The translations under genes were made by a program, and so were the position numbers. Positions 2,403-40,489 of a stretch of 40,489 nucleotides of DNA are shown here, one piece after another (the stretch's first letter is position 1; each line of letters starts with the position of its first letter). Under the pieces are notes generated by a model, which saw only the letters and a program-made list of their open reading frames with translations, had not been told where the DNA came from and searched no databases. The stretch lies in NCBI GenBank assembly GCA_009787695.1, contig WQSW01000005.1, forward strand, positions 1 to 40,489. Direction: 5' to 3'. The DNA comes from Treponema sp. (GTDB lineage Bacteria > Spirochaetota > Spirochaetia > Treponematales > Breznakiellaceae).

Positions 2403-2409
2403 GTAAAAT

Positions 2410-2600: not shown

Positions 2601-2624
2601 GAAGAGAGTTAAGATTTTTTTATA

Positions 2625-2688: not shown

Positions 2689-2736
2689 ATTCGAGACCTA
2701 GTGTAAACTTCTTTCTCTTACAGCTTCTTCTTTTTC

Positions 2737-3171: not shown

Positions 3172-3189
3172 ACTTTACTCCTTCCAATT

Positions 3190-5196: not shown

Positions 5197-5218
5197 ATAC
5201 TTGTTCCCTTATATACCT

Positions 5219-5827
5219 TTATGTTTTTACTCTTTCAGCAGATGACCCGCTTTTTGCGATTTTGCCCCGAACAACAGAAGCTGTCTGTTGATCCCCCAAA
5301 TATACTTCTATCTTTTTAATATTATCAAGCGCTTGCGGAATTTTAATTTTTTCAAAAAGATTAACACGCTGTGTTGTTGTTCTTAATTCTTTATCAAGCC
5401 TTTTTCTTTGCTCTTCTACTATCTGCGCTTCCAATTCCAGTAAGAGTGATTGTTTCATGCAGTCTATTGCAGTATCAAGCCACAAAGGGGTACGCGCAAG
5501 ATCGTAGCGGGATATCTCAAAATCCGCCCCTTTAAAAATCGGAATGGGTACGCCGGCAACATTCCCCTGCTCTGTTCTAAGGCTTGTAATTTTTAAAATA
5601 TTTTTAGTGAAAAATCCTGTCTCGCCGAAGACTGCAATCCACCTTTTAAAAGATTCATCTAAGTTTTCTCTGGCTGAATGTAATTCCTTTAAACGAAGGT
5701 CTGTAAGCCTGATTTCTCCCTGTAACTGTTGTTTTTTAAGCATCAATGTAGGTAAATAGCGTTTATACCTTTTAAGAGAATCTTTTTGCTTTTTAAGTTC
5801 GTTTTTTGTAAGCCTTATCTTAGCCAT
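5219..5827 (-). CDS. ntpD: V-type ATPase subunit D (central rotor stalk)
   Basis: The N-terminus (IRLTKNELKKQKDSLKRYKRYLP) is the hallmark of the D subunit, whose long antiparallel coiled coil passes through the A3B3 head and couples ATP hydrolysis to rotation of the K ring. The 202-residue length is normal for the family. Helical, coiled-coil-prone segments at both ends flank a short globular middle. It lies 13 bases after the ntpB stop and 22 bases before ntpI. No separate F subunit, the usual partner of D on the stalk, is present in this operon. Confidence 0.93.
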   Translation of the reverse strand: MAKIRLTKNELKKQKDSLKRYKRYLPTLMLKKQQLQGEIRLTDLRLKELHSARENLDESFKRWIAVFGETGFFTKNILKITSLRTEQGNVAGVPIPIFKGADFEISRYDLARTPLWLDTAIDCMKQSLLLELEAQIVEEQRKRLDKELRTTTQRVNLFEKIKIPQALDNIKKIEVYLGDQQTASVVRGKIAKSGSSAERVKT

Positions 5828-5840
5828 TATTTATTCCCGA

Positions 5841-7139: not shown

Positions 7140-7184
7140 ACTTTCCCCTAACCGCCCAAACTTTCGTTATTACTTAAATGAAAC

Positions 7185-8972: not shown

Positions 8973-9673
8973 TTTTTATCTCCCGTCATTTCACTTTTAT
9001 TATTTTGACTCTCTTGATAAAAATCTCCGCGCGGTTCGCTGGATTCGTTAGATGAAGAATTTATAATTTGAGAGTAGATTGTTTTATATTCAGAGAATCC
9101 TTTTTCAACTATAAATAATTGCCGGCGTTCAAGAATCAGCAATTTTAAAAAATAGGCATATACATTATTACGGTCAAAATATTCGTTACCTGCCATTAAA
9201 TCAATCGCATTCCACCGCGCTTTATCTATTAATATTTCCCCGTCAAGCGGCGAGCCTTCTTGAGTAAAGACTACGGAAGCTGTGTTATACGCATCTGCAG
9301 GAAGAACTGGTATATTAAAGGTTTCCATGTTTTCAAAGAAATATGTATCTTTATCGCCGTCTTGCGCTTCATTTTTATAATCGTTCGGACTTTTTTTATT
9401 CTGTAATTCCAAGTAGCGGTATCTTGCAAGATTTAAACGTAAAGTTTTTTCCCAATCACGCCAGTCATCGATAAAACTGCAGCCGGTAGAAACTGTTTTT
9501 TTTGTGCTGCTTACATCATTATTCAACTGTAAAGAAAGATATTTTAAAAGGGATGCATCTTTTTTACTTAATAATAATGATGCCAATTCCTTAAAAGCCT
9601 CTGATGACATAGGCGGCTTTTGATCATACATCAAAGAGGGTAACTGGGACATAAGGTAATAATATAATCCCAC
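8969..9673 (-). CDS. V-ATPase-associated DUF2764-like protein (possible C-subunit substitute)
   Basis: The start is GTG, preceded by AAGGA nine bases upstream inside the end of ntpE, only 3 bases after its stop. The sequence begins MGLYYYLMSQLPSL, matching the protein that occupies this place in Treponema and Chlamydia V-ATPase operons and is catalogued, as I recall, as DUF2764. It is largely helical and soluble, with no signal peptide. The C-terminal tail (about 205-234) is Ser/Asn/Glu-rich and looks disordered. Operons of this type lack a recognisable subunit C (the socket joining stalk and rotor). Position and size (234 residues) make this protein the obvious candidate for that job, but that is inference from context, not from motifs. 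Confidence 0.75.
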   Translation of the reverse strand: MGLYYYLMSQLPSLMYDQKPPMSSEAFKELASLLLSKKDASLLKYLSLQLNNDVSSTKKTVSTGCSFIDDWRDWEKTLRLNLARYRYLELQNKKSPNDYKNEAQDGDKDTYFFENMETFNIPVLPADAYNTASVVFTQEGSPLDGEILIDKARWNAIDLMAGNEYFDRNNVYAYFLKLLILERRQLFIVEKGFSEYKTIYSQIINSSSNESSEPRGDFYQESQNNKSEMTGDKK

Positions 9674-9676
9674 TAA

Positions 9677-10294
9677 TTACATTCCTTTAGATGAATCTTT
9701 AATTATTTCAGCCAATTTGGGATTCAAGTAACTTGAAAGAAGCCCTGCAACCGCTTCTGAGGAAAAGTCATAATAGGCAGATCCTTCTTTGTTTGATATT
9801 TGAAAACCATAGGCTAATTTGCGGTTTGATTTTAATTCAATACCTTTTCCCAATTCTTTCTTTAACTGATCTGTAAAGAAAGCCTGAAGCTGGTTTAATT
9901 GATTTTCCGGCAGAATCAAATTAATAGTATCGCTGCCTTTAGAAGACCAATTTTTAATAAGCTCAGGCAAGATTGATTTTAGAATATCGCCGTTATAATT
10001 AGCGCCAATATTCTCGCTAACAATCTTGTTTAACAGTGCTTGAATTTCATCTTTGAAAGCCAAAATCAAGTTACGGGATGCCTGTTGTAATGCAGCAAGC
10101 GATGCCCTTTCGGCACGTTCTGCTTCCAGTTTGCTGTTAGAAATAATAGCGTCCGCTTCTTTTTTAGCTGCTTCGATGATACGTGCCGCTTCTGCTTGCG
10201 CGCCGTTTTTAATTTCTGACGCTTGCCTTGAAGCTGTATCAATCCCGTCCTTTTTTATCTTATCAATAAGTTCTTGAACCTGAATTTCCATCAT
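9677..10294 (-). CDS. ntpE: V-type ATPase subunit E (peripheral stalk)
   Basis: The first ~110 residues form a long alanine-, lysine- and glutamate-rich helix (AAKKEADAIISNSKLEAERAERA), the right-handed coiled-coil part of the peripheral stalk. The rest is a small alpha/beta head-binding domain (SNRKLAYGFQIS, then YYDFSSEAVAGLLSSYL). The 205-residue length is normal. The start codon choice is between two adjacent Met. The usual partner, subunit G/H, is not seen in this window. It lies between the spirochaete-specific gene at 10363-11877 and the DUF2764-like gene. Confidence 0.9.
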   Translation of the reverse strand: MMEIQVQELIDKIKKDGIDTASRQASEIKNGAQAEAARIIEAAKKEADAIISNSKLEAERAERASLAALQQASRNLILAFKDEIQALLNKIVSENIGANYNGDILKSILPELIKNWSSKGSDTINLILPENQLNQLQAFFTDQLKKELGKGIELKSNRKLAYGFQISNKEGSAYYDFSSEAVAGLLSSYLNPKLAEIIKDSSKGM

Positions 10295-10362
10295 TTCCCC
10301 TTTGTTTTAATTTATCAATATAAATATTGTATTATATATCCTTTTATTTCACAACCTTTTTT

Positions 10363-11877
10363 TTACTGTGTGCATAAATGCATTAATTGAACGAAAAAGT
10401 TAATCCTCTTAAAATCGTTAATCATTCTCTGCTGCAAAGGATCTCTTGAAACTAAGGTTATCTCCTTCCAGTTGATAAGCAGTTCCGGGTGTTTCTTTTG
10501 CAGATCCTCAATCAAGTTTTTAAGATGTTTCCCTATAACTATTAAGTTCTGAGCGGCTTCATTGATTATTTCAAGGGCTTCGGCGTTATTTTTAGCGACA
10601 ATGCTGTTTATATAACGGACTTGCGTCTGGTCGCGATCAACTCTTAAAAGGGCAGCCCGAAGCCGGGAGCCGTCACCGCCGTCTTCTCCCATGACTACAT
10701 CTATATCGTTTATTTTGCCTTGAGTATCCAATAAACTATGCATTGCCTCGCTCATTTCCCTTGACATCGTATTATTTGTCCATTGACCGCGTATTATTAC
10801 GATATCGCAGAGTTCTTTTATTTCTTTTTCGACATAATCATCAAGGAAAGCTTTTAAATAATTCAGCCCTTCTGCATAGTAAAAAAAATCAACATTCTTT
10901 TTTCGGTATGTCTCACTTATCTGCACATTGTAGTTATCCAGCCGGTTAAGGTCTGTAGTTTCAAAAATTTGCTTTGTTAATGCATTAATTTGCGTGTTCT
11001 TTTTAGCATTGTTTATTATGGCAATATAATTATAAGCATCGTTCTTTTTAGTTTCCAGCCAAGTATCGCCTATTGTTTCACGGAAAACCGAATGTTTAAA
11101 TTGCCATACAGGGTTTCTAAGGGTGTATTGAACCATCAATTCAAGGATTTTTGATGTATGAATCTCGCGCAAAGTCTTAATCATTGTATTGAATTCTTCA
11201 TAATTGACAAGATCGTGACCTTCGCAGGATTTAATCAGGCTTAAAAGCCCGTTCCAGTCTTCTTCAGGTTTTAAAGGCTGTGTCACTGTTAAAAAATCCC
11301 CGATTTGATCGATCATTAAAATAGTTTTAATGGCGGGGTATTTGGGCTCGATAATAAAACTGCCGTCTGCAAAATGAGAGTCAAATTTCTTAAAAAAACC
11401 GGCAAAATTATATGAAACAAATTGATAAAAAGCCGAAGTTAATTCGTAACGATGGTTAACATTTGTTATGTGCTTTGAATCAAACTGATGGACAAGAAGA
11501 TCAACATCGGCTTGAATTGATGCAATAAGCTCTTCTCCGGAAACAGTTTTTATTTTTTCATCAAGTGCTGCAGGATCAATGCGTTTTACCGTTTCTTTTA
11601 CATTTGCGTCTATACATGAATCAACGATTAAGTGCCTTAATTTTTTCATTCTGCCTTCGTCTTTCATGAATAGTTTGATAGGATATATCATTTTATAAAC
11701 AGAAAATAAAAATGACATAAAAGAGGGGTCTGTTTCTTCGGTTCTAATTCTAAAAAATTTGGCATATTTGCTTTGACTTAATTCTTTACCGATGCCTTTC
11801 AGCATATTTTGCTTTTCATCGGTTAAACCTTCGTTCGAAAATAAGGAAAATACTTTATCCATAAAGTCTTCTGCCAT
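10363..11877 (-). CDS. Conserved spirochaete protein of unknown function heading the V-ATPase operon
   Basis: This 504-residue protein is soluble, predominantly helical, and has no signal peptide or membrane segment. It may correspond to a spirochaete-only family (DUF5312, from memory). I can see no catalytic motif. A conserved-looking acidic/glycine stretch (VVMGEDGGDGSRLRAALLRVDRDQ) is near residues 395-420. It is the first gene after the operon promoter and 68 bases before ntpE. The position suggests an accessory, assembly or regulatory role for the ATPase, but the link is by neighbourhood only. AGGAG lies 7 bases before the ATG, a clear ribosome binding site. Confidence 0.75.
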   Translation of the reverse strand: MAEDFMDKVFSLFSNEGLTDEKQNMLKGIGKELSQSKYAKFFRIRTEETDPSFMSFLFSVYKMIYPIKLFMKDEGRMKKLRHLIVDSCIDANVKETVKRIDPAALDEKIKTVSGEELIASIQADVDLLVHQFDSKHITNVNHRYELTSAFYQFVSYNFAGFFKKFDSHFADGSFIIEPKYPAIKTILMIDQIGDFLTVTQPLKPEEDWNGLLSLIKSCEGHDLVNYEEFNTMIKTLREIHTSKILELMVQYTLRNPVWQFKHSVFRETIGDTWLETKKNDAYNYIAIINNAKKNTQINALTKQIFETTDLNRLDNYNVQISETYRKKNVDFFYYAEGLNYLKAFLDDYVEKEIKELCDIVIIRGQWTNNTMSREMSEAMHSLLDTQGKINDIDVVMGEDGGDGSRLRAALLRVDRDQTQVRYINSIVAKNNAEALEIINEAAQNLIVIGKHLKNLIEDLQKKHPELLINWKEITLVSRDPLQQRMINDFKRINFFVQLMHLCTQ

Positions 11878-11894
11878 TTTTATGCTCCTAAATT

Positions 11895-11923
11895 ATATTA
11901 ATACAGGTATTTTAAATTTGCAA
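11895..11923 (-). promoter_or_regulatory. Sigma70-type promoter of the V-ATPase operon
   Basis: On the minus strand TTGCAA (11918-11923) and TAATAT (11895-11900) are 17 nt apart. The ribosome binding site AGGAG (11885-11889) and the ATG of the first gene follow within 25 bases, giving a very short leader. Confidence 0.6.
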
Positions 11924-11979
11924 GTTTTTTATTAAATATTAAATTAGTACATTTTATTTTAATATAATTGTATTTATCA

Positions 11980-13023
11980 TTAATAATCTTTTAAATGTTT
12001 TTTTAGTAAAAAGCCGAATTTATACCCTATACCTATTTGAATACTGGTGCGGGTGTATTGAATCGTCTGTCCCGGAAGATGTGAATAATCAGTATCCATT
12101 ATAAAACATGGGTCTATGACGATCATCCCGTACCCTGCTTTTACCCCTAGCTGGATACCTGCAAACCATGATAAAAATGAGGGCGATGTTGTTCCCATTA
12201 ATGATTGGTTGATTGATAAACCTCCATATGGTTCCAGCATAAAATGATCTGCCGGTTTTAAAACTAATTTGACTAATAATGGAACTTCTAATATCAAATC
12301 ATGATAATCACCTGAAGAGGTAACAATCCAATCTTGTTTAAATTGGAAACCTGCGGCGACAGATAAAAAATTAAACGGATGAAATTCTATTAACGCTCTT
12401 AAACCAAAATTAAGCCAATTGATTGATTGGTATTCCCCTGCATAAACACTCGGTGCCCACAATACAGCTGCATCTAAATAAAGCCATTTATTACGCCATT
12501 CATTTGTACGCACAATATCTGGAAATCCTGAGAGCATATTGTAAACCATAACAGACAGAAACTGTGCAATGGAAGCATCAATTACATTGTAAAATAATAT
12601 TTGTTTACCGATAACTTCGCCTGTTTTGTTATTTATCAATTCCAATATAAAAGCAAACCCTTGTGAATCATCTGTGTGATCGTCTGTAATATGATAAAAA
12701 GATAAATTATCATTTTTTTCTCTGGAATAAAATTCGTGTATTCCATTTGTTGTATTATTTTGAATTTCATTTTTTACCGCTTTCGTTTCGCTTTCAAGAG
12801 CGATAGTACCTTTCAAAATATAATCGGAAGCTGCTTGCGATCTGACAAGTGTATAAAATTGAGAGACTACTTCAAATGTAAGCTGACGGTAAAAAAAAAC
12901 ATTATCCCCTGCTGTTACGCTTCCTGTAACGGGAGGGACAAACACTTGAATGTCACGGATATTTTGAGCGTATGTAGAAACAGTGACAATAAAAAAAAGA
13001 ATAATTAAAATGTTTTTTTTCAT
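11980..13023 (-). CDS. Secreted, probably outer-membrane beta-barrel-like protein
   Basis: A typical signal peptide (MKKNILIILFFIVTVSTYAQ, cleavage after Ala-Gln or before it) starts the protein. Residues about 25-165 look like a soluble periplasmic domain (AASDYILKGTIALESETKAV). The second half (about 185-345) alternates polar and hydrophobic residues with aromatic ends (INWLNFGLRALIEFHPFNF, LSVAAGFQFKQDW, TSIQIGIGYKFGF), which reads as eight or more beta strands of an outer-membrane barrel. It lies 6 bases after the lipoprotein gene at 13030-13491 and forms a three-gene envelope group with it and 13530-14843. I do not recognise a named family. Confidence 0.7.
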   Translation of the reverse strand: MKKNILIILFFIVTVSTYAQNIRDIQVFVPPVTGSVTAGDNVFFYRQLTFEVVSQFYTLVRSQAASDYILKGTIALESETKAVKNEIQNNTTNGIHEFYSREKNDNLSFYHITDDHTDDSQGFAFILELINNKTGEVIGKQILFYNVIDASIAQFLSVMVYNMLSGFPDIVRTNEWRNKWLYLDAAVLWAPSVYAGEYQSINWLNFGLRALIEFHPFNFLSVAAGFQFKQDWIVTSSGDYHDLILEVPLLVKLVLKPADHFMLEPYGGLSINQSLMGTTSPSFLSWFAGIQLGVKAGYGMIVIDPCFIMDTDYSHLPGQTIQYTRTSIQIGIGYKFGFLLKKHLKDY

Positions 13024-13029
13024 TTTTAA

Positions 13030-13491
13030 TTATAACCAAATAATATCAAAGATATCTGATTCATCACCGCCGCCTGAATAAGTGCCTCTTACTTCGATAG
13101 TATAATGCGATGATTTATCGTTAAACGACACTTTAATTTTATGTCTGCCGGCTGTATTTAATTTAATTTCCCCGTTAGTTATTGGAATGGTATTAGGATT
13201 GTCTACGCTATGAGCATGTTCTAAAATTTCAATTTCTACACCGGGAGTATTGTATGGTATTTCTTTTACAACCCCGTCTCCTGCATACATGATCTGTAAA
13301 TCATCACCGGGAACAAACCATTGTTCAGTTTCATATAAAATACGCGCCGGAACCAGCCATAAAAACTCAAGTTCTCCTGAGCCGGCTCCGTTACCGTTTC
13401 CGTTAGCGTCAATGCTTCCGATAGGTTGATTGCAGCTTATTACTGTGCAGATTGTGAGAATAATAAGTAATATTATCAAAAAACGCTTCAT
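13030..13491 (-). CDS. Small putative lipoprotein
   Basis: The first 20 residues form a lipoprotein signal peptide ending in TVISC, a relaxed spirochaete-type lipobox, with Cys20 as the lipidation site. A Gly/Asn-rich linker (ANGNGNGAGSGE) follows, then a small beta-rich domain (IKLNTAGRHKIKVSF, SSHYTIEVRGTY), possibly Ig-like. The protein is 153 residues. It sits between a larger lipoprotein gene and the beta-barrel-like protein gene, with gaps of 38 and 6 bases, so it is probably co-transcribed with both. No specific function can be assigned. Confidence 0.72.
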   Translation of the reverse strand: MKRFLIILLIILTICTVISCNQPIGSIDANGNGNGAGSGELEFLWLVPARILYETEQWFVPGDDLQIMYAGDGVVKEIPYNTPGVEIEILEHAHSVDNPNTIPITNGEIKLNTAGRHKIKVSFNDKSSHYTIEVRGTYSGGGDESDIFDIIWL

Positions 13492-13529
13492 ATTTGTTTC
13501 AGCCTATCGGAAAAACATTTTAATACAAT

Positions 13530-14843
13530 TTAGTTCTTAAATGCGTTATCAATCTTAATCAAGGAAGGATCTCCTATTCCAAGCAATATTGAACCGCCAA
13601 GACCTACTCCGTTATCAATGTAGTTGTTCTCTATACCGGATTGAACAAACCATAAAATCGGAGCAACACTGTTATCTGCGTTAGCTTTTGTAATCGCATA
13701 TACCGGTATATTAAAGTTAAAAGCGATTAATCCGCCTACTCCTTTCGGCACTTTAATTATAAAATACGCTTCATTATTCAAGGTAGCATCTGCGGTCATA
13801 TTATTTTCCATTGTTACTTCTACACCCAAATCATCTGCGTTACCATTAATTTTTTCACCGTTAATTAACACATTGGGTCCTATTAAATCAGTATATTCAT
13901 AAGACGCAGGAGCGGCTGTAACAATACCCTTTACATAATTTGATATGTGATGAAGTCCTACCGGAGTTGGTAAATCAGGTACCAGACCGCCGGTAGTAGC
14001 AGTCTTAAATGTAAATTTTCCCGCATAATGCCTATCACTACCGGTAGTTTCTTCTGAAGTGAACATATACAATGGGAAAGGTACAGTTTTAAATATTTGC
14101 GCTACGAATTGAGTTCCGTCACCAGGTGTATTAGTGGTAATAGCTGTTATTGTGTCAGCATCATTATCAAAATCGAATGAACCACCTGTTGTATCTTGTA
14201 TTGTATAAAAACTTGAACCTGCTAAATTATCCGGAAATATACCGGATGACAGTGAAGCGATATCAAATGTAACTTTTGATGTTGTAGATTTTACTATTGT
14301 GCTTGGAGTGCCGGGATAATTACCCATATTATCGGCTGTATTAACAAGTGTTCCAACTGCGAGAAGAACAGCTCCTTTGGATGTTTTTTTTCCTACAAAC
14401 AATATAGCCGCTCCTGTGTCTACTGCGGCGACGGCACCTTCTATACTTGAGCTAAAATCAACTGAACCGTAATTAATACCGACAGTTCCATCTTTGCCGC
14501 GGAAAACAGCAAGAGCTGCACCTTCACCACGGGACCATGATGTTCTTGAAACTTTCGGCGCTCCTGCGCCTGAACCATCTGCGTCATAATAGAATACTAC
14601 TTCATAAAAGTCATGGTTAATTCTTGCAAGAGCGTTTGTCAAAGCTCTTGACATATTTTTACTCGGACTTCCGCCTTCAAGATTAATTGTTAATGTTTTT
14701 CCGTCCGCAGAATATTGTGCGAATTCTTCTTTGTTTTCATTTATACCTTTTTCCACTAGCGATAATGGCGCAAAATCACACGCCGCCATCATTAAAGCAA
14801 GCGTTAGAAGTACCGCTATTCCTGTAAAAATCCATTTTTTCAT
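13530..14843 (-). CDS. Large putative surface or periplasmic lipoprotein
   Basis: The signal peptide ends in LMMAAC, a clear lipobox with Cys22. The 437-residue protein is rich in Thr, Ala, Gly and Asp and appears beta-rich, without recognised domain motifs. The strong ribosome binding site AAGGAG (14851-14856) lies 7 bases before the ATG. It is the first gene of the envelope group 14843-11980 and has its own promoter at 14945-14972. The composition would suit an exported surface protein, but this is inference. Nothing in the sequence indicates a binding partner. Confidence 0.72.
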   Translation of the reverse strand: MKKWIFTGIAVLLTLALMMAACDFAPLSLVEKGINENKEEFAQYSADGKTLTINLEGGSPSKNMSRALTNALARINHDFYEVVFYYDADGSGAGAPKVSRTSWSRGEGAALAVFRGKDGTVGINYGSVDFSSSIEGAVAAVDTGAAILFVGKKTSKGAVLLAVGTLVNTADNMGNYPGTPSTIVKSTTSKVTFDIASLSSGIFPDNLAGSSFYTIQDTTGGSFDFDNDADTITAITTNTPGDGTQFVAQIFKTVPFPLYMFTSEETTGSDRHYAGKFTFKTATTGGLVPDLPTPVGLHHISNYVKGIVTAAPASYEYTDLIGPNVLINGEKINGNADDLGVEVTMENNMTADATLNNEAYFIIKVPKGVGGLIAFNFNIPVYAITKANADNSVAPILWFVQSGIENNYIDNGVGLGGSILLGIGDPSLIKIDNAFKN

Positions 14844-31623: not shown

Positions 31624-32490
31624 TTAGCGCGGAGTTATTGACCAATTACCGCCCTGTGTGTTGGGGCGTGAATATACTCCCGCTCTTCTTGCGTTATTAT
31701 TGTATGCAGAGTTAAAACCTGTTGCAAGCCCGAGAACCCCTGTCTGAGCATCGGCTGTAACACCAAGTGTTACATTCGGACCTATACTAACTCTTACTAT
31801 AGCGTTATCTGCAAATGCATTTATATCTATGTTTGTAACTGAATTCGGAATGAATATACTGCTAAGATTATTTCCGCGAAATGCATTGCTGCCGATAATT
31901 TTTACAGTATTTGGGATTGTTATACTTGTTAAATTTTTTTCTCTGAATGCGTTATCTGAAATAACAACAACCGGATATCCGATTATAGTATTGGGTATTT
32001 CTGCTTTATCAGTTCCTTTAAAATCTACAATTGTAATATTATCATTTAATTTCACAAAATTAAAATCATCATGCCAAATATACCAATTGCCGCTTTTATA
32101 ATTGCTTCTTGTAAATGTAGCGGCTGATTTATCAAAAAGTTCGTAATTACTTTCAAAACCCGATCCTATAGCATTTTTTTCAAGTAATACATCAGAGCCG
32201 ATAGTAATACTTTTTAATTTATTTCCCATAAATGCTTTTTCTTCAATTTTAGTAATATTATCGGGAATAACTATACTTTCTAAAAGCATATACGAAAATT
32301 GCCCGTACTTTATAGTTGTAACATTTTCATCTGTAGATATAACCGGATTATTTCCAAACAGCAAACCGTTGTATATATTATAACCGAAAGTAATTGCTTC
32401 TCTAATCCAGCCTTTATAAAAACCGAATCCCCACATTGCTACACTTATTATTACAGTAATAATTAAAATAAATATATTTTTCTTTCCCAT
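31624..32490 (-). CDS. Membrane-anchored leucine-rich-repeat (BspA/TpLRR-like) protein
   Basis: An N-terminal hydrophobic helix (about 5-25) would anchor or export the protein. At least five LRR_5-type units follow, such as IPNTVKIIGSNAFRGNNL and IPNSVTNIDINAFADN, typical of treponemal TpLRR and BspA proteins that bind host or microbial partners. The C-terminal Gly/Asn-rich tail (YNNNARRAGVYS) is not repeat. It is 23 bases after the GAP1-like gene, as the last gene of the cluster from the right edge. LRR proteins of this type are widespread in Treponema, so membership in the GTPase cluster is by proximity only. Confidence 0.82.
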   Translation of the reverse strand: MGKKNIFILIITVIISVAMWGFGFYKGWIREAITFGYNIYNGLLFGNNPVISTDENVTTIKYGQFSYMLLESIVIPDNITKIEEKAFMGNKLKSITIGSDVLLEKNAIGSGFESNYELFDKSAATFTRSNYKSGNWYIWHDDFNFVKLNDNITIVDFKGTDKAEIPNTIIGYPVVVISDNAFREKNLTSITIPNTVKIIGSNAFRGNNLSSIFIPNSVTNIDINAFADNAIVRVSIGPNVTLGVTADAQTGVLGLATGFNSAYNNNARRAGVYSRPNTQGGNWSITPR

Positions 32491-32513
32491 TTAATCTTTC
32501 TCACTCCGTTTTT

Positions 32514-35225
32514 TTATTTCTTTTTAAAAATATCTAAGATACTGCTTTTATGCTTATTATTAAAGTCTTCAAAATATTTTTTAAACTGTGCCTGCTCTTT
32601 TTCTTCTGCCAAACTCATCAATTTATCAAAAATCTTTTTTCTGTCGCCTTTTGATACTTTTTCAAAGTAATTTTCTGCAATTTCACCCAGTTTTTTATCA
32701 ATTATTTCTTTGGAATTTAATAAATGCTTTTTAAACAAATACATTATTAGCTTAGCAGAGTCAGTTCTTGTTTTCTTTATACCTTCTATAATGTTAAAAG
32801 TTATCTCTTCTGTATTTGCTTTTTCTATAATCTTCCCAAATGCTTTTTTAACTATATCATCATAATTAAATTGTTTAGCATCTGCGGTTGCCCCTGATAT
32901 TAAAATATTTACCACAGGCTGAAAATAAAATTCAACAAAAGTATTTATGCTTTTATTGTAATCAACATTTTTAAAACTTTTTTCAAAAACTTCATGATGA
33001 TTTTTCTCATTTGATTTTGAAAAGAATGATATTACATCCATTACTTTTTGTTTAAACCCGTAATCTTCAAGAATTCTGCCGCAAACTGTAATCAGGTATA
33101 GTTCACGTGTTTCCTGCTTTATTGCATTATTTGCAGTGTTGTATAATTCATTTAATAAATTAAATTTATCTTGTTTTTTTAATAAGTCATCTTTAAATAT
33201 AATTTCGTAGGGTAAAGAAAATATTGTTTCCAGAACACTGATATATACAGGCATTAAAAGCGCTTTGTCTGTATTTGCAGGAAATTTCATTGTTTCAAGA
33301 ATATTAAAACATTCTTTTATTTTCTTTTCAGTCTGGATACCTCTAAGATATTCGCTTAACCGCTTAGAGAAAATTCCTGTATCCGCTCCTTTTATATAGT
33401 ATTTCTCAAAATAATCTTTTAACGCTTTAAGGCTTAACGGTTCATTCATAAAAGAATAAGCGTCTTTTTTTATTAAGAAATCTTTTAATTCCTGATTTTT
33501 CGCACCTTCAAAGCCAATAAAGAAAGCATTATCCTTATTTTGCGTATCAATATATAATTTAATAAATTCGTCTTTCCCCGAATTATTATTAATTAAAAAT
33601 ATTAAAAATGAATAAGCGAAGTCCTTTTTTGTACGCAATCGCAGCAGTAAATTAAATGCAAATTGAGTATCTGTAAATTTATTTCCTGATTTCATTTCAT
33701 CGGAAACTATAAAAGAAAGCAATTCAAGCCCTAAAGATTCCGAGCATTTTATCAGTAAATCAAGGTCTGAAACAGATTTTTGTTTTAATACTGATGCAAA
33801 TATATTTTTACTTACATTTGATTCTTCTGCAGTATAGTTTTTTGTTTGAATTGAATTCTTAACAGCTGGTAAGTTTATAAGAGTATCATATACTAAAAAT
33901 AACTTAATAAATGAGTTTTGATTTTGACCAATATAATTTGATAATCCTTCTTCTTTTAAATAATCAAGATAATTTTCAAAAATAAAATTTGCCTTTGATT
34001 TAAGATCATCGCGGAAAGCAACTGCGCCGCTTGTGCTAATTCCGAATTTTTCTGCACTATTAAGAATTATTTTAATAATTCCAACTCTGGTTTTTATTTC
34101 CTTTATGTTTTTATAAATAAAACTGTAAATGCTCAATTTTTGCTGAGCATCAAAATTAATTTTTGTCATATTATTGCAAAGATTAGCGGCGATAGAATGT
34201 GTTTCATAACCTTTATTATCTGCCAATAAAACCGTATCAAAAATTTCTTTTGCATCTTTAAAAGCGGAAAAATCAGCTTTTTTAATATTAAATAAATCCG
34301 CAGCCTCGTTTATATTAACCGAATAAACAGACATTATTTTATTTATATCATCAACAAACTTTACAGCTTCGAATATGCCGGTAGCAAGTAAATTAACAAC
34401 ACTTTCTGTATATTTTCCGGGACTAACAGATGAAGGAATTATATTTTTTATTAAATCAAAAGCAAATCCTCCTCTCTGCGCTTCTTGTACATATGTAAAC
34501 TGCGAGCTTTCAGTACGGTTAAACCTAATCTGTATTTTTGATGATACATTTCCGGGAACTATACCGTTTATAAAATAAGAGCAAATACTTATTTTATTTT
34601 GCATTTCTTTTGGCAAGCACAAGCTTATTATTTTAAGCCAATATTTTAGCTTTTTATGATCATCATTAAAACTGATACTTTTTTCACTTGACGACTGAAT
34701 TATTGCTTCAAGAAAAAGTTTTAACTTTTCTTTACGATCATCATTTAAAAAGGAAGTTAAATCATTTTGTGAAAGCATACCTCCGTTATCCGGTATGTTA
34801 ACTTTTTTTAAATCATCGGGAATAGGATCATCATGCCATTCCTGCTTTGTTAATTCACGTTTAAATATATTATTTTCGATAAAACTATAAGGAGAAAAAT
34901 CTCCTGTCTTATCAAAAACAAACGCATGTATAATATAATTTCCCCATCTGGTATCAAGTTCGCTGTAAACCCTGCCGACATAGCATACTTGCGCTAAACA
35001 TACACGTCCTGAAGAAAGAATGAAATATCCGTATTTTTTAGGGAACAGATCTTCTATTTCCTGTGCTGTGGGTTCATAAGGCAAACCCGGCGGGGTTTTA
35101 TAAATCATTACCTCACGGATTTCTGCACTTTCTTCTTCTGTAACATCTTTTGATTTAGAAAAAACACTGAACGCTCCGTTCCTGTCTTTACCGCAAGCGG
35201 TATATATGTATTGACTGGCTAACAT
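32514..35225 (-). CDS. GAP1-like GTPase-associated protein
   Basis: I place the start at the ATG at 35225 (MLASQYIYTA), because GGAGG lies 8 bases before it. The ATG at 35240, five codons earlier, contains that ribosome binding site and has none of its own. The protein is about 903 residues. Its N-terminus (GKDRNGAFSVFSKS, then a strand rich region with LPYEPTAQEIEDLFPKKYGYF and GNYIIHAFVF) resembles the GAP1-N2 domain; the rest is a long helical region. Families of this name accompany double-GTPase genes in predicted bacterial conflict systems, as recalled from comparative work, and here both neighbours upstream are such GTPases. The N-domain assignment is by pattern recognition; function is not known. 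Confidence 0.72.
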   Translation of the reverse strand: MLASQYIYTACGKDRNGAFSVFSKSKDVTEEESAEIREVMIYKTPPGLPYEPTAQEIEDLFPKKYGYFILSSGRVCLAQVCYVGRVYSELDTRWGNYIIHAFVFDKTGDFSPYSFIENNIFKRELTKQEWHDDPIPDDLKKVNIPDNGGMLSQNDLTSFLNDDRKEKLKLFLEAIIQSSSEKSISFNDDHKKLKYWLKIISLCLPKEMQNKISICSYFINGIVPGNVSSKIQIRFNRTESSQFTYVQEAQRGGFAFDLIKNIIPSSVSPGKYTESVVNLLATGIFEAVKFVDDINKIMSVYSVNINEAADLFNIKKADFSAFKDAKEIFDTVLLADNKGYETHSIAANLCNNMTKINFDAQQKLSIYSFIYKNIKEIKTRVGIIKIILNSAEKFGISTSGAVAFRDDLKSKANFIFENYLDYLKEEGLSNYIGQNQNSFIKLFLVYDTLINLPAVKNSIQTKNYTAEESNVSKNIFASVLKQKSVSDLDLLIKCSESLGLELLSFIVSDEMKSGNKFTDTQFAFNLLLRLRTKKDFAYSFLIFLINNNSGKDEFIKLYIDTQNKDNAFFIGFEGAKNQELKDFLIKKDAYSFMNEPLSLKALKDYFEKYYIKGADTGIFSKRLSEYLRGIQTEKKIKECFNILETMKFPANTDKALLMPVYISVLETIFSLPYEIIFKDDLLKKQDKFNLLNELYNTANNAIKQETRELYLITVCGRILEDYGFKQKVMDVISFFSKSNEKNHHEVFEKSFKNVDYNKSINTFVEFYFQPVVNILISGATADAKQFNYDDIVKKAFGKIIEKANTEEITFNIIEGIKKTRTDSAKLIMYLFKKHLLNSKEIIDKKLGEIAENYFEKVSKGDRKKIFDKLMSLAEEKEQAQFKKYFEDFNNKHKSSILDIFKKK

Positions 35226-35246
35226 TAACTTTTCCTCCATTAAAAA

Positions 35247-36701
35247 TTATTTTATAACTTTACTGATTACTCTGCTTTTCTTTTTAACTAACCAAAAGAA
35301 AGGCTCTTCTACATTTGATGAAACAAACGGCTGTCCGTTTGCAACATGCCCTAAGGCGCTGCATGTAAAAAATTGTATGCTTCTAAAACGGGATTTTAAA
35401 TTATTAATAAAGCCGTCTTCATTGTATTCTCTGAAAAACTTTTCGCACAATTCATTTTGTGTTTTATAAATATCTTTTTGATCTTGACTCGGCGAATTTT
35501 TTATAATTGCATTCTTTCCTATTTTAATATCTAATCCCGGTATATCGGCTTTTGTGATTACCACAGCTACATCGGTATTCAGCATAGCGCTTGCTTTAAT
35601 GCTGAAAATATTCTGAAGAGTTCTTACAAACGTTTCCACCATTTCATCAAGACGCTGTGTACTTCCTTTATATTCATTTACTTTAGCAACAGAAGCAACC
35701 TCTTTGCAGTAATCAGGAATTGAAAGCGGATCAACAATTAAAATAAAAGCATTTGCATATTTAAACCCCTGCTGGCCTCCTATATCTCCGCCTTGAGTTA
35801 TATCAAAAAGCTCTCCTGCAACATCACATAATGAAATTAATTGTTTTGTCGCTCCTTTGGGTGTCAGAGAAAATTGATAATATCTTAATCTGTAATCTGT
35901 TGTTTTATCAGGCAGATACCCTTTTGAAAGACGGTTAGAATATTCTTCATATTCATCAAACCCGCCTATATCGTTTTTTTCATAAAGGAACTTTAAGCCG
36001 TATTTGGAAAATGAATCTTTTTCTAAGGACATCATCGTCATATTTATATAACAAGTTTTACCTGAACTTGGACCTCCGATAACAGGAATACACCATGATG
36101 CCTGTAATCCGCCGTCTTTAACATCTTTGGTACAAGAAGGGCATTTCGCCTCTAATTTTTGCCTTCCGTTAAAAAATGTTGTCGGTAACTTTTTGCCGCA
36201 ATTGCACTTTCTCCATAAAACTCCGTATATACCGGGGCGCAGCCTTGTATGTTCATTGCCGCACGAGCAAATATAGACAGGCATATAAAAATGTTCCTGG
36301 CATGTCGGACAATGATTTGATATTGCATTAATAGCACAGAATATTCTGTCTGCAAGAATAATAATAATAAAGAAAATTGATGCGATTAAAAAGAATGTAA
36401 AAAGTATTGTTATTTGAAAAATTGCAATAAAAAAACATATTAGAGGCGTTACTATAGAGCAAAAAATTAATCGGGTAAGATAAAAAGTAAACATAAAGAA
36501 ATTCGGTACATTTGTAAAGATAGCTCCTAAATGATGCTCACGGAATCTGTCTATTATGTCTTCAAATTTTTCCGCTATCCCGTCTTTACTTCTGCCTATA
36601 ATATCGCCGCATTCTGAAAAAGCGCCTGAGATAACGCGCGCTATATCAACAAATCCGCCGTAAAAAAAGTAGCTTAATTCTGCAGGTTGTTTGTGTTTCA
36701 T
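35247..36701 (-). CDS. Membrane-linked zinc-ribbon protein with a double-GTPase-like (DO-GTPase2) domain
   Basis: Residues 67-116 are hydrophobic and form two membrane helices. A cysteine-rich module follows: pairs at 131/134, 145/147, 166/168 and 187/190, consistent with two zinc ribbons. The P-loop GTPase then shows Walker A GGPSSGKT (209-216), G3 DVAGE (293-297) and G4 TKAD (383-386). DO-GTPase2 is the family name I recall for such neighbours of GAP1. The zinc module probably binds a partner or nucleic acid at the inner membrane face. It is 13 bases after a small membrane protein gene and 21 before the GAP1-like start, in an operon-like row. Confidence 0.78.
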   Translation of the reverse strand: MKHKQPAELSYFFYGGFVDIARVISGAFSECGDIIGRSKDGIAEKFEDIIDRFREHHLGAIFTNVPNFFMFTFYLTRLIFCSIVTPLICFFIAIFQITILFTFFLIASIFFIIIILADRIFCAINAISNHCPTCQEHFYMPVYICSCGNEHTRLRPGIYGVLWRKCNCGKKLPTTFFNGRQKLEAKCPSCTKDVKDGGLQASWCIPVIGGPSSGKTCYINMTMMSLEKDSFSKYGLKFLYEKNDIGGFDEYEEYSNRLSKGYLPDKTTDYRLRYYQFSLTPKGATKQLISLCDVAGELFDITQGGDIGGQQGFKYANAFILIVDPLSIPDYCKEVASVAKVNEYKGSTQRLDEMVETFVRTLQNIFSIKASAMLNTDVAVVITKADIPGLDIKIGKNAIIKNSPSQDQKDIYKTQNELCEKFFREYNEDGFINNLKSRFRSIQFFTCSALGHVANGQPFVSSNVEEPFFWLVKKKSRVISKVIK

Positions 36702-36714
36702 ATAATTCCTATCC

Positions 36715-37014
36715 TTAACTTATAAATGTAAAAAAATAATAAACTAATGCTATCGAATACAAAATAACTATCAAAATAAAAATAAATGTAATAGCCATCA
36801 TTAAAACTTTAAAAGCTTTACTTGTAATATTTTCATTCATTGATACAATATAATTTCTTATACCGTAAAAAATACCGACAAACATTCCGATAACAGCGCC
36901 TGCTGCAAGTACAATCAATAAACCTTTTGCTACATAAGGCGCCAACCAAATTATTAATTTGATTATTCCGTAAATAACAGCAATAATAATACCAATTATT
37001 ATCAAATAATGCAT
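36715..37014 (-). CDS. Small membrane protein between two GTPase genes
   Basis: The 99-residue protein has three hydrophobic helices (about 3-24, 28-50 and 68-97), the last followed by a very short tail. A good ribosome binding site (GGAGAG) precedes the ATG. It lies 10 bases after the zinc/GTPase gene at 37025 and 13 before the membrane-linked GTPase gene. It probably belongs to the same complex as a membrane partner; nothing else can be deduced. Confidence 0.7.
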   Translation of the reverse strand: MHYLIIIGIIIAVIYGIIKLIIWLAPYVAKGLLIVLAAGAVIGMFVGIFYGIRNYIVSMNENITSKAFKVLMMAITFIFILIVILYSIALVYYFFTFIS

Positions 37015-37024
37015 TAAAACTCTC

Positions 37025-38170
37025 CTATTTCTTTAATGTTTTTATATAACGATTTTCGGCTAACAGCCACAAAAGCGGATCCAAAACACGTCGCGGGCGG
37101 ATACCTTTACTTGGAATATCTGCCGCTTCTCCGCCGAATGCCGATACACCGAAAAACGAAATTTTTTCAAATAGATTTAAATAACTTGATATACTTTGAC
37201 TGTCATCCTTAAGCAAATTGGCAAACAAAGTATCCATTTCTATACTTGTATTTTCAAATTCCTGCTGAATAAACGCTCCGCGATCTATGTGAGTTGATTC
37301 ACTTCTTAAACTGCTGTCAGTCGGTAAAACATCGTATTGTTCCAATACATCAAGTTTAGTAAACACTAAAGCAAGAGGGATTTTTATTTGCTTATTAGTA
37401 TTTTTTGTACCTCTTATAACGCTTATTACCATATCAAGAACATCAGCAGTGTTTGTATTTTGCTGAGGAAGCCCTTTATACCCTTTGCTTTCAAGCATCT
37501 TTCTGATATTCGGAACTTGCAGAGGGTCTAATAATAAAATAAGACCTTTTGCATTTGTAATATATTTATTATATGTAAGCATTACATTTTTATCATCTAA
37601 ATTCTCACCTGCTGTATCATAAAAAGTTAATGCAGCCATATTTATAATTTTATTTTTTTCATTTAAAAAACTTAACGGAAAAATAAGAGGCTGGATTTCT
37701 TTACTGCCGTCTGTACCAAGAATTTTTTTGCCTTCTCTGTATAAAGGACGGTAAAACTCATTATCATACTCCGCTTTTGATTCCTTACTGCAAGCCATAG
37801 AAAGAGATGTATTAAAAGCGCTTGCCATTCTATTGCGTATCTCGTTAACAAGAACTCCGATATAGTTGGATTTACCGGATGCCTTTGCACCTAAAAGAGC
37901 AATCGGCAAACTTTTCATTGATAAAAACTCAATTGGGATTTCTTTACCCGGAAACAATTTACAAAAAAGCTGTTTTGCCGCTTCCTGACATGAAAGACAT
38001 TTTTTTATTTGCGCGTCCGGAATCCAATCATATCCTGCAGCATCATCGTATTTTTGAATTCCAAACTTGCACTTAACAGAAGAGCCGATAATATTATAAG
38101 AGCATTTTAAACGGCAATCTGAAATACTATGTTCTCCGTAACAATACGGACAAGTAAATTTTCCTATCAT
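37025..38170 (-). CDS. Zinc-binding P-loop GTPase (double-GTPase-like)
   Basis: The N-terminal 75 residues hold cysteines at 7, 10, 19, 23, 34, 59, 62 and 70, most likely a zinc-binding fold. The GTPase domain has Walker A GAKASGKS (94-101), G3 DTAGE (185-189) and G4 TKLD (271-274), with a G5-like GVSAFGG (341-347). No membrane segment is visible, unlike its neighbour at 35247. Paired GTPases of this kind match the double-GTPase systems of predicted NTP-dependent conflict loci. It follows the zinc/FN3 gene by 24 bases and has a ribosome binding site GGAAG. Confidence 0.78.
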   Translation of the reverse strand: MIGKFTCPYCYGEHSISDCRLKCSYNIIGSSVKCKFGIQKYDDAAGYDWIPDAQIKKCLSCQEAAKQLFCKLFPGKEIPIEFLSMKSLPIALLGAKASGKSNYIGVLVNEIRNRMASAFNTSLSMACSKESKAEYDNEFYRPLYREGKKILGTDGSKEIQPLIFPLSFLNEKNKIINMAALTFYDTAGENLDDKNVMLTYNKYITNAKGLILLLDPLQVPNIRKMLESKGYKGLPQQNTNTADVLDMVISVIRGTKNTNKQIKIPLALVFTKLDVLEQYDVLPTDSSLRSESTHIDRGAFIQQEFENTSIEMDTLFANLLKDDSQSISSYLNLFEKISFFGVSAFGGEAADIPSKGIRPRRVLDPLLWLLAENRYIKTLKK

Positions 38171-38194
38171 ACTTTACTTCCTTAATATAAAAAT

Positions 38195-40489
38195 TTATAA
38201 ATTCTTTACTTCTTTTAAAGTAATAATATTATTATCAACTGACGGAAATACTGCAAATTTAGTACTTACCGGGACAGAGTCCGATTTAATTGTAACACTG
38301 GCGGTAAATCCTCCGCCTGAAAGCAATCCTTTCTTAAGAGTAATTACAGGCGTTCTTTCCACAAGCTGTCCGTCATTTTTTGACATAGGGCGCGGATTGC
38401 CTTTCACAAGCATAAGTTCGGGAATAACCGCCGGTTTATCGGATTTAAAATCAATTTTAATCGGGAATGATTTTCCGGCAGTAACGGTGTATTTTATTGT
38501 ATATTGAACGGTTGCTTTTTCTCTTAACGTAATAACACTGGAAAGAGGCACACCGCAGGTTACAGTTACTACACCTTCGTTATCAGTTTCTGCAAATATA
38601 GTTATATAGCTATCGGTATTTGATTTTAATTTAACATGCAAACCGTTTTTTACAAAATCTTCTTTTGTAACAGCAATTTTATAGCCGTCAGAACTTAAAT
38701 TTACAGGAAATGCTTTATCGCTTATCTTTGCTACAATATTTTTCGCACAAACATGAGGCTGCCCTGTTATCACAGCTTCATCGCTGGTTTCTGAAAAACT
38801 GATTTTAGAAACACCTATCATTGTATTCACTACAAAAGGCTTTGATACAATTAAAAGCTGTTCATTGCATACTACAGGATAAACATAATACAATTTATCA
38901 GGCGGAAGATTAAAGGAAGCGGTATTATCATCTGATACTAATAAATTAGCTGTGTTTACGCCTTTATTAAAATTTTTAAATTCTGCAACCTGCAAGGTTT
39001 TTCCGAATTCGCAATGTATCTCTTGCGGACTGAAATATATCTCTCTCTTTCCTGAAATGGTTTTATCACAGGTAAAGGTAAACGAAGTAGTTCCGTTTTG
39101 TTCGATTTTAATATTAGTTAATGGTTTTAATTCTTCGAAAGCCTTAAATGTGCGCGTAACACCTTTGGAACGTGTAGTGCCTTTACTGTTTTTATAAATA
39201 CACACAAATAAATAACTGTTGCCCGCTTTATCGTAATCGCTGTCTTCAAAAGATTCGTTTCCTTTAACAGAAATTTTTTGACCGTCTGTATTTCCGGAAG
39301 GCGGTGTCAGCCCTTTTTTCTTGATTACTTCTACTTCACCGACATTTAAAGGTGTTTCCCATCTTACAACAATTTTACCGGAAACAACTTCCTGCCTGAT
39401 ATTTGAAACATCAAAATAAGTTATTATCTGGGAAGCAGAACATACAATGGCTGAGTTTATTCCAAGACGCGAAGAAAAAACAGCGTAAAAATACGGAGTA
39501 TCGGAAACTATAGTTTTATCTTCAAAAAAATTGATACTTAAACCGCTTGCCACTACAGTGCCGTCTTCTGCCGATGTCGGTTTAGAACCTGTCTTTCTGA
39601 TAATCGTATATGCAACTAATTTTTGCACTTTGCTTTGATTCCAGCTAATCAATGCCGCATTATCTTTTATTGCCGCAGTTACACTTTCCGGAACCTTCGG
39701 AGGAAACTTTGATAAAATTTGCTTTGCTTCAATATAGTCTGATGCTAAATCAAGCGCACTTGCAATTTCGCTGACAGCAGCTTCCTCATTATTTTGTGCG
39801 GAAAGTGTTTTTGCTTTTTCAGCATACTGCTTTACCCGCGCTACTATCGAATTGATCGAGGCTGCAAGTGCATCGGTTTTTACGGCGTTATATGTAGGAT
39901 ATTTATTTTTAAGCGTTGTTACAGCTCCTGATGCTGTAAAGAATTTTTTTAAATTAACCAATTCCTGTATTTTTTCATATTCTTCTTTGTAAGCAGTCCC
40001 TACTGTTTCTTCTTCTTTTACTTTTTTATTTACTTTATCCTGATACTCAGTAACTTTTTTAGCAATTTTTGAAGATGATACTTTAGAATAATCGGGAAGT
40101 ATATTTTTTAAATTATTAAGTTCTGTTTGAATATCAGTTATTGAAATACCCGGCTGAACAAGCAGGGTGTCTATTTTTTTTACGATAGTATCAAAACGAG
40201 TTGAGTGATCTTTTGTCGCTAAACATGCAGGACAGGTTTTATTTTTTTCTGTATAAGGCGCTTTTCCGCCGCAGTTCCAGCACACTATCTCTAGTGATGT
40301 ATGACAATGCGGACAGGATTTAGTATTGCTGCTGGCATTATAACTTTTATTGCAGTTCGGGCAATTTTCCAAATTCATTCTTCGTTTATCACCGCCCGCT
40401 AAAGTGATACGAAATGTTTGCAGCCCTTCTGCTAAAAGCGTTTCAACAAAATCAGCATCTTTAATATTTAATGCGGTTTTAACTCTCTC
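38195..40489 (-). CDS. Double-zinc-ribbon protein with FN3-like domains, probably running off the right edge
   Basis: From the ATG at 40378 the protein has 727 residues: two Cys4 zinc ribbons (Cys6, 9, 22, 25 and 33, 36, 49, 52), a helical region (about 55-220), then beta domains resembling fibronectin type III from about 230 (VPESVTAAIKDNAALISW, and later IVVRWETPLNVGEVEVIKK). The frame stays open for 37 more codons to the window edge, reading ...DADFVETLLAEGLQTFRI..., with no other frame usable and no good ribosome binding site at the ATG. The true start is therefore probably outside. It is the first gene in the GTPase cluster seen here. A binding or sensing role for the beta domains is inferred. 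Confidence 0.75.
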   Translation of the reverse strand, partial: ERVKTALNIKDADFVETLLAEGLQTFRITLAGGDKRRMNLENCPNCNKSYNASSNTKSCPHCHTSLEIVCWNCGGKAPYTEKNKTCPACLATKDHSTRFDTIVKKIDTLLVQPGISITDIQTELNNLKNILPDYSKVSSSKIAKKVTEYQDKVNKKVKEEETVGTAYKEEYEKIQELVNLKKFFTASGAVTTLKNKYPTYNAVKTDALAASINSIVARVKQYAEKAKTLSAQNNEEAAVSEIASALDLASDYIEAKQILSKFPPKVPESVTAAIKDNAALISWNQSKVQKLVAYTIIRKTGSKPTSAEDGTVVASGLSINFFEDKTIVSDTPYFYAVFSSRLGINSAIVCSASQIITYFDVSNIRQEVVSGKIVVRWETPLNVGEVEVIKKKGLTPPSGNTDGQKISVKGNESFEDSDYDKAGNSYLFVCIYKNSKGTTRSKGVTRTFKAFEELKPLTNIKIEQNGTTSFTFTCDKTISGKREIYFSPQEIHCEFGKTLQVAEFKNFNKGVNTANLLVSDDNTASFNLPPDKLYYVYPVVCNEQLLIVSKPFVVNTMIGVSKISFSETSDEAVITGQPHVCAKNIVAKISDKAFPVNLSSDGYKIAVTKEDFVKNGLHVKLKSNTDSYITIFAETDNEGVVTVTCGVPLSSVITLREKATVQYTIKYTVTAGKSFPIKIDFKSDKPAVIPELMLVKGNPRPMSKNDGQLVERTPVITLKKGLLSGGGFTASVTIKSDSVPVSTKFAVFPSVDNNIITLKEVKNL

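What the first reader, a model, noticed from the sequence alone, without database searches (positions are those of the whole stretch)
31624..40489. Six-gene cluster of double-GTPase and GAP1-like proteins: candidate conflict system
Genes run in one direction with gaps of 10-24 bases: zinc/FN3-like protein, zinc-binding GTPase, small membrane protein, membrane-linked zinc/GTPase, GAP1-like protein, LRR protein. DO-GTPase and GAP1 families, as I recall, are neighbours in loci predicted as NTP-dependent conflict systems. Their presence in a spirochaete with this set of partners, including FN3 and LRR-like proteins, looks little studied. Function, target and trigger are unknown.
Basis: partly seen in the sequence, partly recalled or inferred. 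Interest (0 to 1): 0.85.

Follow-up and report, generated by a model that had tools for sequence, protein, structure and literature searches.

The report
Chaperone-gated double-GTPase defence-like operon
A termite-gut-type spirochaete carries a nine-gene operon that joins two Hsp70 chaperones (one fused to a peptide-binding vWA domain) to a pair of GTPases and their partner protein; it is a rarely seen, apparently mobile machine of a class predicted but never tested to guard bacteria against invaders.

Summary
The six window genes are the last two-thirds of a nine-gene operon (contig 31,624-46,057; gaps 6-27 bases) that continues past the window: GrpE-like, Hsp70, Hsp70-vWA fusion, J-like/zinc-ribbon/FN3 protein (1017 aa), soluble DO-GTPase, small membrane protein, membrane DO-GTPase, GAP1-N2 protein, BspA-type LRR protein. 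Pfam confirms GAP1-N2 (8e-17) and DO-GTPase2 (1e-15). It belongs to the GAP1-N2 'HSP70 theme' of Kaur et al. 2020 (PMC7159879), predicted as a conflict system. New here: occurrence in spirochaetes (10 of 200 family genomes, 2 of 40 in the genus); an Hsp70 whose lid is replaced by a vWA domain, forming one clade from Firmicutes to spirochaetes; and near relatives in a Fibrobacterota termite-gut genome (Hsp70 ATPase domain 84% identical against about 65% for ordinary DnaK between phyla), which indicates transfer. In sister genomes the J-like head is attached to FN3, WD40 propellers, membrane helices or Hsp70 itself, and effector slots carry FGS, TIR or Sel1. Two sister operons lie by TIR, STAND, prophage or restriction genes. 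Best reading: a chaperone-gated sensor-GTPase switch at the membrane, probably anti-invader; function untested.

The parts
31624..32490 (-). BspA-type leucine-rich repeat protein, 288 aa, with one N-terminal membrane anchor; last gene of the operon; not found after GAP1 in any relative read here, so a locus-specific partner (candidate effector or outward-facing recognition protein)
   Evidence: PF13306 4.7e-24; hydrophobic segment 6-24; 23-base gap to GAP1; absent in L007, L008, L010, L013
32514..35240 (-). GAP1 (GTPase-associated protein 1) with N-terminal domain type 2 and middle domain, then a long helical C-terminal part; 908 aa
   Evidence: PF20013 8.4e-17, PF20014 2.4e-4; 63% identity to the Fibrimonas protein over residues 6-325
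35247..36701 (-). membrane-anchored DO-GTPase with zinc ribbons, 484 aa; P-loop GGPSSGKT, DVAGE, TKAD motifs intact
   Evidence: PF19993 1.2e-15; motif alignment and hydropathy; 58% identity to Fibrimonas and 28% to Oscillospiraceae orthologues
36715..37014 (-). small membrane protein, 99 aa, three hydrophobic segments; a counterpart lies beside the membrane DO-GTPase in Fibrimonas and, by position and type, in Oscillospiraceae
   Evidence: hydropathy; 45% identity over 69 aa in L055
37025..38170 (-). soluble zinc-ribbon DO-GTPase, 381 aa; GAKASGKS, DTAGE, TKLD motifs intact
   Evidence: PF19993 6.9e-6; motif alignment; 63% identity to Fibrimonas, 30% to Oscillospiraceae
38195..40489 (-). C-terminal part of a 1017-aa protein (whole gene contig 38195-41248): J-like helical head without HPD, helical region, double zinc ribbon, coiled region, FN3-like beta repeats. 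Upstream, beyond the window and on the same strand: Hsp70-vWA 41267-43357, Hsp70 43385-44992, GrpE-like 45020-46057
   Evidence: DZR 6e-4; ten-row alignment with all zinc cysteines invariant; upstream genes HSP70 4.6e-88 + VWA 5.9e-18, HSP70 9.5e-97, GrpE 2e-5 just under cut-off

Best explanation
The locus is a GAP1-N2, HSP70-theme double-GTPase system, most likely an anti-invader (phage or mobile element) sensor-and-switch machine at the inner membrane. Proposed working: the large J-like/zinc-ribbon/FN3 protein is the sensor. Two dedicated lidless Hsp70s, recycled by a dedicated GrpE, hold it in a primed inactive state; the second carries a vWA domain in place of the Hsp70 lid, so that ATP-driven opening and peptide binding sit in one chain, as MoxR and vWA do as two chains in the sister class of systems. 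When the sensor meets its target, chaperone release is passed through GAP1 to the soluble/membrane pair of DO-GTPases, whose GTP switch activates the membrane-side partners (small membrane protein, LRR protein; FGS, TIR or other modules in relatives). Shown: gene content, operon layout, intact ATPase, GTPase and MIDAS motifs, absence of HPD and of the Hsp70 lid, fusion of the J-like head to Hsp70 in a relative, patchy distribution, signs of transfer, defence-type neighbours in two relatives. Inferred: sensor role, order of signalling, effector identity, anti-invader purpose. About 0.9 that it belongs to this published class; about 0.55 that its job is conflict.
For: Family hits. Same core gene order in termite Treponema MAGs, an Oscillospiraceae MAG, Fibrimonas and others of the family. 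All Hsp70 ATP-binding and catalytic positions checked are intact in both chains while the interdomain linker is changed and the alpha lid is absent, replaced by vWA in one; Hsp70-vWA chains form one clade, 98/97. Intact GTPase motifs. In relative G099 the J-like head occurs on four proteins with different tails (FN3; two WD40 propellers with near-identical repeats; membrane helices) and is fused to an Hsp70, which links head and chaperone and points to an exchangeable recognition part. Partners after the core vary: LRR_5, FGS, Sel1, TIR, transglutaminase, FliG_C. Neighbours: CAP12/Pycsar TIR and DUF4062-NACHT-TPR in G022; phage integrase, type III restriction genes and GmrSD in G181. 10/200 genomes; Hsp70 ATPase domain 84% identical across phyla against about 65% for DnaK.
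Against: No experimental support anywhere in the library searched; PADLOC has no matching model. The window's own flanks hold no defence genes. In the window-Fibrimonas pair the FN3 part is conserved (mostly 60-86%) while the J-like head is not (33-52%), contrary to the published 'rapidly evolving FNIII sensor'. The J-like assignment is weak: no Pfam DnaJ hit, hhalign probability 4%, no HPD. Fibrimonas lacks the Hsp70-vWA gene between Hsp70 and the J-like protein, so that chain is dispensable or replaceable.
Confidence: 0.6

Rival explanations
1. An accessory envelope-stress or protein-quality machine: dedicated Hsp70/GrpE plus membrane GTPases refold or sort proteins at the inner membrane, with no role against invaders.
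For: Chaperone and membrane components dominate; the operon is divergent, 194 bases away, from an SPFH/zinc-ribbon/TPM cassette of the membrane-stress kind; a DO-GTPase is described beside a psp operon (PMC11237479).
Against: Rare and patchy (10/200), transferred between phyla, effector-like variable partners and TIR/STAND/restriction neighbours in relatives; the SPFH cassette occurs in many genus genomes beside other genes and never beside this operon in those read.
Confidence: 0.22
2. A device for display, assembly or reading of surface proteins (LRR_5 here; FGS, PEGA and other outward domains in relatives), serving attachment or self/non-self recognition in the gut community rather than intracellular defence.
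For: LRR_5 protein with a membrane anchor at the end of the operon; PEGA and FGS domains beyond a membrane helix on DO-GTPases in relatives; hosts are mostly gut symbionts.
Against: Core sensor, Hsp70s, GrpE, GAP1 and soluble GTPase carry no secretion signal and are cytosolic families; the LRR gene is unique to this locus among those read.
Confidence: 0.13
3. Assembly or binning artefact: the operon does not belong to this spirochaete, or the Fibrimonas copy is a misplaced treponeme contig.
For: Draft MAGs; Fibrimonas copy is split over two contigs; five ambiguous bases just past the window edge.
Against: The operon sits inside an 86-kb contig between treponemal genes such as parC and shares its tetranucleotide usage (0.65-0.71); Fibrimonas operon correlates 0.58 with its own flank and 0.39-0.52 with the treponeme contig; a single-contig complete genome of the same family carries the same kind of operon.
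Confidence: 0.04

Closest known systems
[quoted passage not shown] 2020 (PMC7159879)
   Same: GAP1-N2 protein downstream of DO-GTPase; two DO-GTPases with zinc ribbons, one membrane-anchored; HSP70, second HSP70, GrpE; FN3 protein with a J-type head; membrane partners
   Different: Found in a spirochaete (theme described mainly from actinobacteria and firmicutes); second Hsp70 has the beta half of the substrate domain and a vWA domain in place of the lid (not mentioned in the paper's text; figures and source data not seen); head lacks HPD; LRR_5 partner; only one or two N-terminal and no C-terminal membrane helices on the membrane GTPase
MoxR-vWA ternary conflict systems (System 1, PMC7159879)
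   Same: NTP-driven chaperone coupled to a vWA peptide-binding domain, variable effectors including FGS and TIR
   Different: The chaperone is Hsp70, not an AAA+ ATPase, and vWA is fused to it; no VMAP or iSTAND
DnaK-DnaJ-GrpE chaperone triad
   Same: Hsp70 ATPase residues, SBD-beta, GrpE-like exchange factor, J-like head
   Different: Dedicated paralogues beside the genome's own DnaK (C11:51103); no lid, altered linker, no HPD
GAP1-N1 GTPase-centric systems (the kind reported from spirochaetes)
   Same: DO-GTPase and GAP1
   Different: GAP1-N type 2, FN3 protein instead of GASH, HSP70 module present

Membership tests
GAP1-N2 GTPase-centric system (PMC7159879) | GAP1 with N2-type N-terminal domain and M domain | tested here: met
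   PF20013 8.4e-17 over cut-off; PF20014 2.4e-4, 21.7 bits against 24; both over cut-off in the Oscillospiraceae orthologue
GAP1-N2 GTPase-centric system (PMC7159879) | DO-GTPase(s) with Walker B glutamate, zinc ribbons, one membrane-anchored if two | tested here: met
   Two genes; DVAGE and DTAGE; N-terminal cysteine pairs; hydrophobic segment in the 484-aa copy
[quoted passage not shown]
   Hydropathy shows one strong N-terminal segment (two in Fibrimonas) and no C-terminal one; the paper gives this as the usual form, not as a requirement
GAP1-N2 GTPase-centric system (PMC7159879) | FN3-repeat protein | tested here: met
   fn3 1.4e-5 in the aligned L012 orthologue (alignment); not scored directly in the window protein
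GAP1-N2 GTPase-centric system (PMC7159879) | rapid evolution of the FN3 part | tested here: not met
   Window versus Fibrimonas: FN3 region mostly 60-86%, J-like head 33-52%
GAP1-N2 HSP70 theme | HSP70 and GrpE genes in the operon | tested here: met
   HSP70 9.5e-97 and 4.6e-88; GrpE 2e-5 (24.7 bits against 25.8), 8e-9 in the Fibrimonas orthologue
GAP1-N2 HSP70 theme | second HSP70 without peptide-binding domain | tested here: inconclusive
   Both chains keep an SBD-beta-like part and lack the lid; one has vWA instead
GAP1-N2 HSP70 theme | DnaJ domain on the FN3 protein | tested here: inconclusive
   Collinear J-like helices but no HPD, no Pfam hit, hhalign probability 4%; fusion of the head to Hsp70 in G099 supports it
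Anti-phage defence system | measured protection against phage or plasmid | not testable with these tools
   No PADLOC model matches; needs an experiment
Anti-phage defence system | location near defence or mobile genes | tested here: inconclusive
   Not at the window locus; yes for G022 and G181 relatives

The most novel reading that the evidence does not exclude
The Hsp70-vWA chain is a one-protein counterpart of the MoxR-vWA pair, and the J-like head is a universal plug that lets interchangeable recognition tails (FN3, WD40, membrane) be loaded on it: a bacterial chaperone-guarded sensor system working like the Hsp90/Hsp70-guarded NLR receptors of plants and animals, with GTPases in place of the STAND switch.
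Probability: 0.25. Interest if true: 0.8.

Novelty: new variant of a known kind. Interest (0 to 1): 0.55.

Why it matters
The GTPase-centric conflict systems have been a computational prediction since 2020 with no test found in the library searched. This locus and its relatives give a compact, complete set of parts, show a chaperone-vWA fusion that ties the two predicted classes of systems together, reveal that the sensor head is combined with swappable tails, and place the system in spirochaetes, including one single-contig complete genome (3,855,671 bases; from memory the size of the cultivated termite isolate Leadbettera azotonutricia ZAS-9), where the function could be tested.

Tried and rejected
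AlphaFold models of GAP1 (pLDDT 41.5) and of the J-like/FN3 protein (46.1) were too poor for fold searches because the alignments were shallow; no fold search was run. Viral contigs, plasmids (GAP1) and phages (DO-GTPase): no relatives, so no direct phage or plasmid carriage is shown. Empty-site test: flanks parC, DUF6675 and SPFH were traced in 40 genus genomes; parC neighbours and SPFH cassette are conserved but lie in other contexts, so no clean insertion point could be named. GAP1-N2 profile alone underestimates prevalence (3 real hits in 200; the L006 hit is a chance antisense match); DO-GTPase and full-length J-like/FN3 profiles raised it to 10/200. Prophage ends around the G181 operon: no convincing att repeats or tRNA at its ends, so cargo versus neighbour is undecided. 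DGR diversification of FGS domains: two FGS copies in G022 were compared only as repeats; no reverse transcriptase search was made. Promoter scan of the GrpE/SPFH gap: 4 sites against 1.7 expected, not informative.

Full report
Observation. The window is bases 1-40489 of an 85,833-base contig of a 2.82-Mb draft genome. The window, however, cuts the operon. The zinc/FN3-like ORF continues to contig base 41248 (1017 aa; five ambiguous bases lie at 40490-40667, left as they are), and upstream in the same operon are an Hsp70-vWA fusion (696 aa; HSP70 4.6e-88, VWA 5.9e-18), an Hsp70 (535 aa; 9.5e-97) and a GrpE-like protein (345 aa; 2e-5, just under cut-off), with gaps of 18, 27 and 27 bases. The operon thus has nine genes and spans contig 31624-46057. 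A divergent SPFH / TFIIB-type zinc-ribbon / TPM cassette starts 194 bases further on.

Parts and motifs. Both DO-GTPases keep P-loop (GKT/GKS), DxAGE and TKxD motifs; the 484-aa copy has a strongly hydrophobic N-terminal segment, the 99-aa protein three. Both Hsp70s keep every ATPase position checked (E. coli D8, K70, E171, D194, T199, D201) but have a changed interdomain linker, keep a beta substrate domain and lack the helical lid; in the 696-aa chain a vWA domain with a DxSxS...T...D metal site stands in its place. The N-terminal head of the 1017-aa protein is helical and collinear with a J domain but has no HPD in any of ten relatives, no Pfam DnaJ match and only a weak profile match, so it is called J-like. 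Its zinc cysteines are invariant.

Relatives. A genome-wide scan with GAP1 found four loci. In an Oscillospiraceae MAG (L013) the same set occurs: GrpE, Hsp70, Hsp70-vWA, J-like/FN3, DO-GTPase, GAP1, a transglutaminase-fold protein, membrane DO-GTPase and a small membrane protein. Two Treponema MAGs (Im510_bin79, Kf353_bin150) have it with PEGA and FGS domains on a DO-GTPase. In Candidatus Fibrimonas termitidis (Fibrobacterota) the operon, split over two contigs, matches ours at 58-75% across GrpE, Hsp70, J-like/FN3, both GTPases and GAP1-N, but lacks the Hsp70-vWA gene and has a shortened GAP1. A DO-GTPase2 search of 200 genomes of the window's family exposed further operons whose GAP1 falls below the Pfam profile (read), and a ten-row profile of the J-like/FN3 protein gave 10 carriers of the long protein in 200 genomes, 2 of 40 in the window's genus. 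With the GAP1-N2 profile, 2 of 393 genomes drawn over the phylum and 1 of 168 Fibrobacterota matched above cut-off. One carrier is a single-contig genome of 3,855,671 bases; from memory this is the size of Leadbettera (Treponema) azotonutricia ZAS-9, which would make the family Breznakiellaceae, the termite-gut spirochaetes (PMC13067680).

Transfer. In an Hsp70 tree the window's operon Hsp70 pairs with Fibrimonas (99/100; ATPase domain 84% identical), while ordinary DnaK is 87% identical within the family and about 65% between phyla; the operon Hsp70 of another Treponema MAG pairs with Oscillospiraceae instead (89/99); all Hsp70-vWA chains form one clade (98/97). The simplest reading is that the system entered this family more than once and that the fusion arose once. 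Tetranucleotide usage places each copy with its own contigs rather than with the other's, which argues against misbinning without excluding it.

Signs of a conflict role. (a) Rarity and patchiness. (b) Constant core with changing partners: LRR_5 (window), FGS, PEGA, Sel1, TIR, transglutaminase fold, FliG_C. (c) In relative G099 the J-like head stands on four proteins, with FN3, eight or five WD40 repeats of near-identical sequence, or membrane helices as tails, and on an Hsp70; the last fusion ties head to chaperone, and near-identical WD40 repeats are, from general knowledge, typical of recognition proteins such as fungal HET-E. (d) In G022 the operon is followed by a CAP12/Pycsar-type TIR protein (1.1e-6) and a DUF4062-NACHT-TPR protein; in G181 it lies beside a phage integrase with a type III restriction pair and GmrSD within about 30 kb. 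Against: nothing of the sort flanks the window copy, no PADLOC profile matches, the FN3 part is not the fast-evolving part in the window-Fibrimonas pair, and there is no experiment in the library.

Mechanism proposed. Sensor (J-like/zinc/FN3 or WD40) held by lidless Hsp70s and reset by GrpE; vWA in place of the lid supplies peptide binding; release signals through GAP1 to the soluble/membrane DO-GTPase pair; the GTP switch sets off membrane-side partners. Only gene content, order, motifs and fusions are shown; sensing, order and output are inferred.

Comparison with the known. Kaur et al. 2020 (PMC7159879) describe GAP1-N2 systems and a theme (about 14%) with HSP70, GrpE, a second HSP70 and an FN3 protein with a DnaJ domain, mainly in actinobacteria and firmicutes. 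The window locus meets the core tests of that class. It departs in host phylum, in the vWA-for-lid Hsp70 (absent from the paper's text; its figures and source data were not available), in the HPD-less head and in the LRR partner. Hence: new variant of a known, predicted, untested kind.

Noticed in passing
L073 (G099:C246:11000-30999), 715-13438 minus strand: Array of J-like-headed paralogues in one operon: two with WD40 propellers (8 and 5 repeats), one with membrane helices, one fused behind an Hsp70; a TrwB/HerA-like ATPase (PF10412 2.8e-41) and an unassigned 461-aa protein lie upstream of GrpE.
   Followed up: partly
L062:5256-12795 (G022): TIR protein of the CAP12/Pycsar effector family about 85 bases after the last DO-GTPase gene, then TPR proteins and a DUF4062-NACHT-TPR protein: possible further members of the system or a defence island.
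   Followed up: partly
L063/L069 (G181:C1:1374000-1412999): Operon next to a phage integrase and terminase-like genes, with a DNA methylase, type III restriction-like protein and GmrSD further along.
   Followed up: partly
L010:3520-4711: In Fibrimonas the gene after GAP1 encodes a protein with a FliG C-terminal domain (1.1e-24), followed by an SMI1/KNR4-type immunity-like protein.
   Followed up: no
window 11980-14843 and L020, L021: A trio of secreted or lipoprotein-like genes beside the window's V-ATPase genes resembles, by eye, trios that in sister genomes stand directly behind parC, where the window has DUF6675 and the GTPase operon: a rearranged spot.
   Followed up: no
contig 46252-49425 (L002:10253-13426): SPFH with C-terminal zinc ribbons, TFIIB-type zinc ribbon and TPM proteins form a cassette kept in many genus genomes in changing neighbourhoods.
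   Followed up: partly
contig 40490-40667 (L002:4491-4668): Five single ambiguous bases cluster just past the window's end inside the J-like/FN3 gene, pointing to strain mixture or poor coverage there.
   Followed up: no
window operon against L055: The Hsp70 substrate half (56-59%) and the J-like head (33-52%) diverge much faster than the ATPase half (80-92%) and the FN3 part, as if head and substrate site change together.
   Followed up: no
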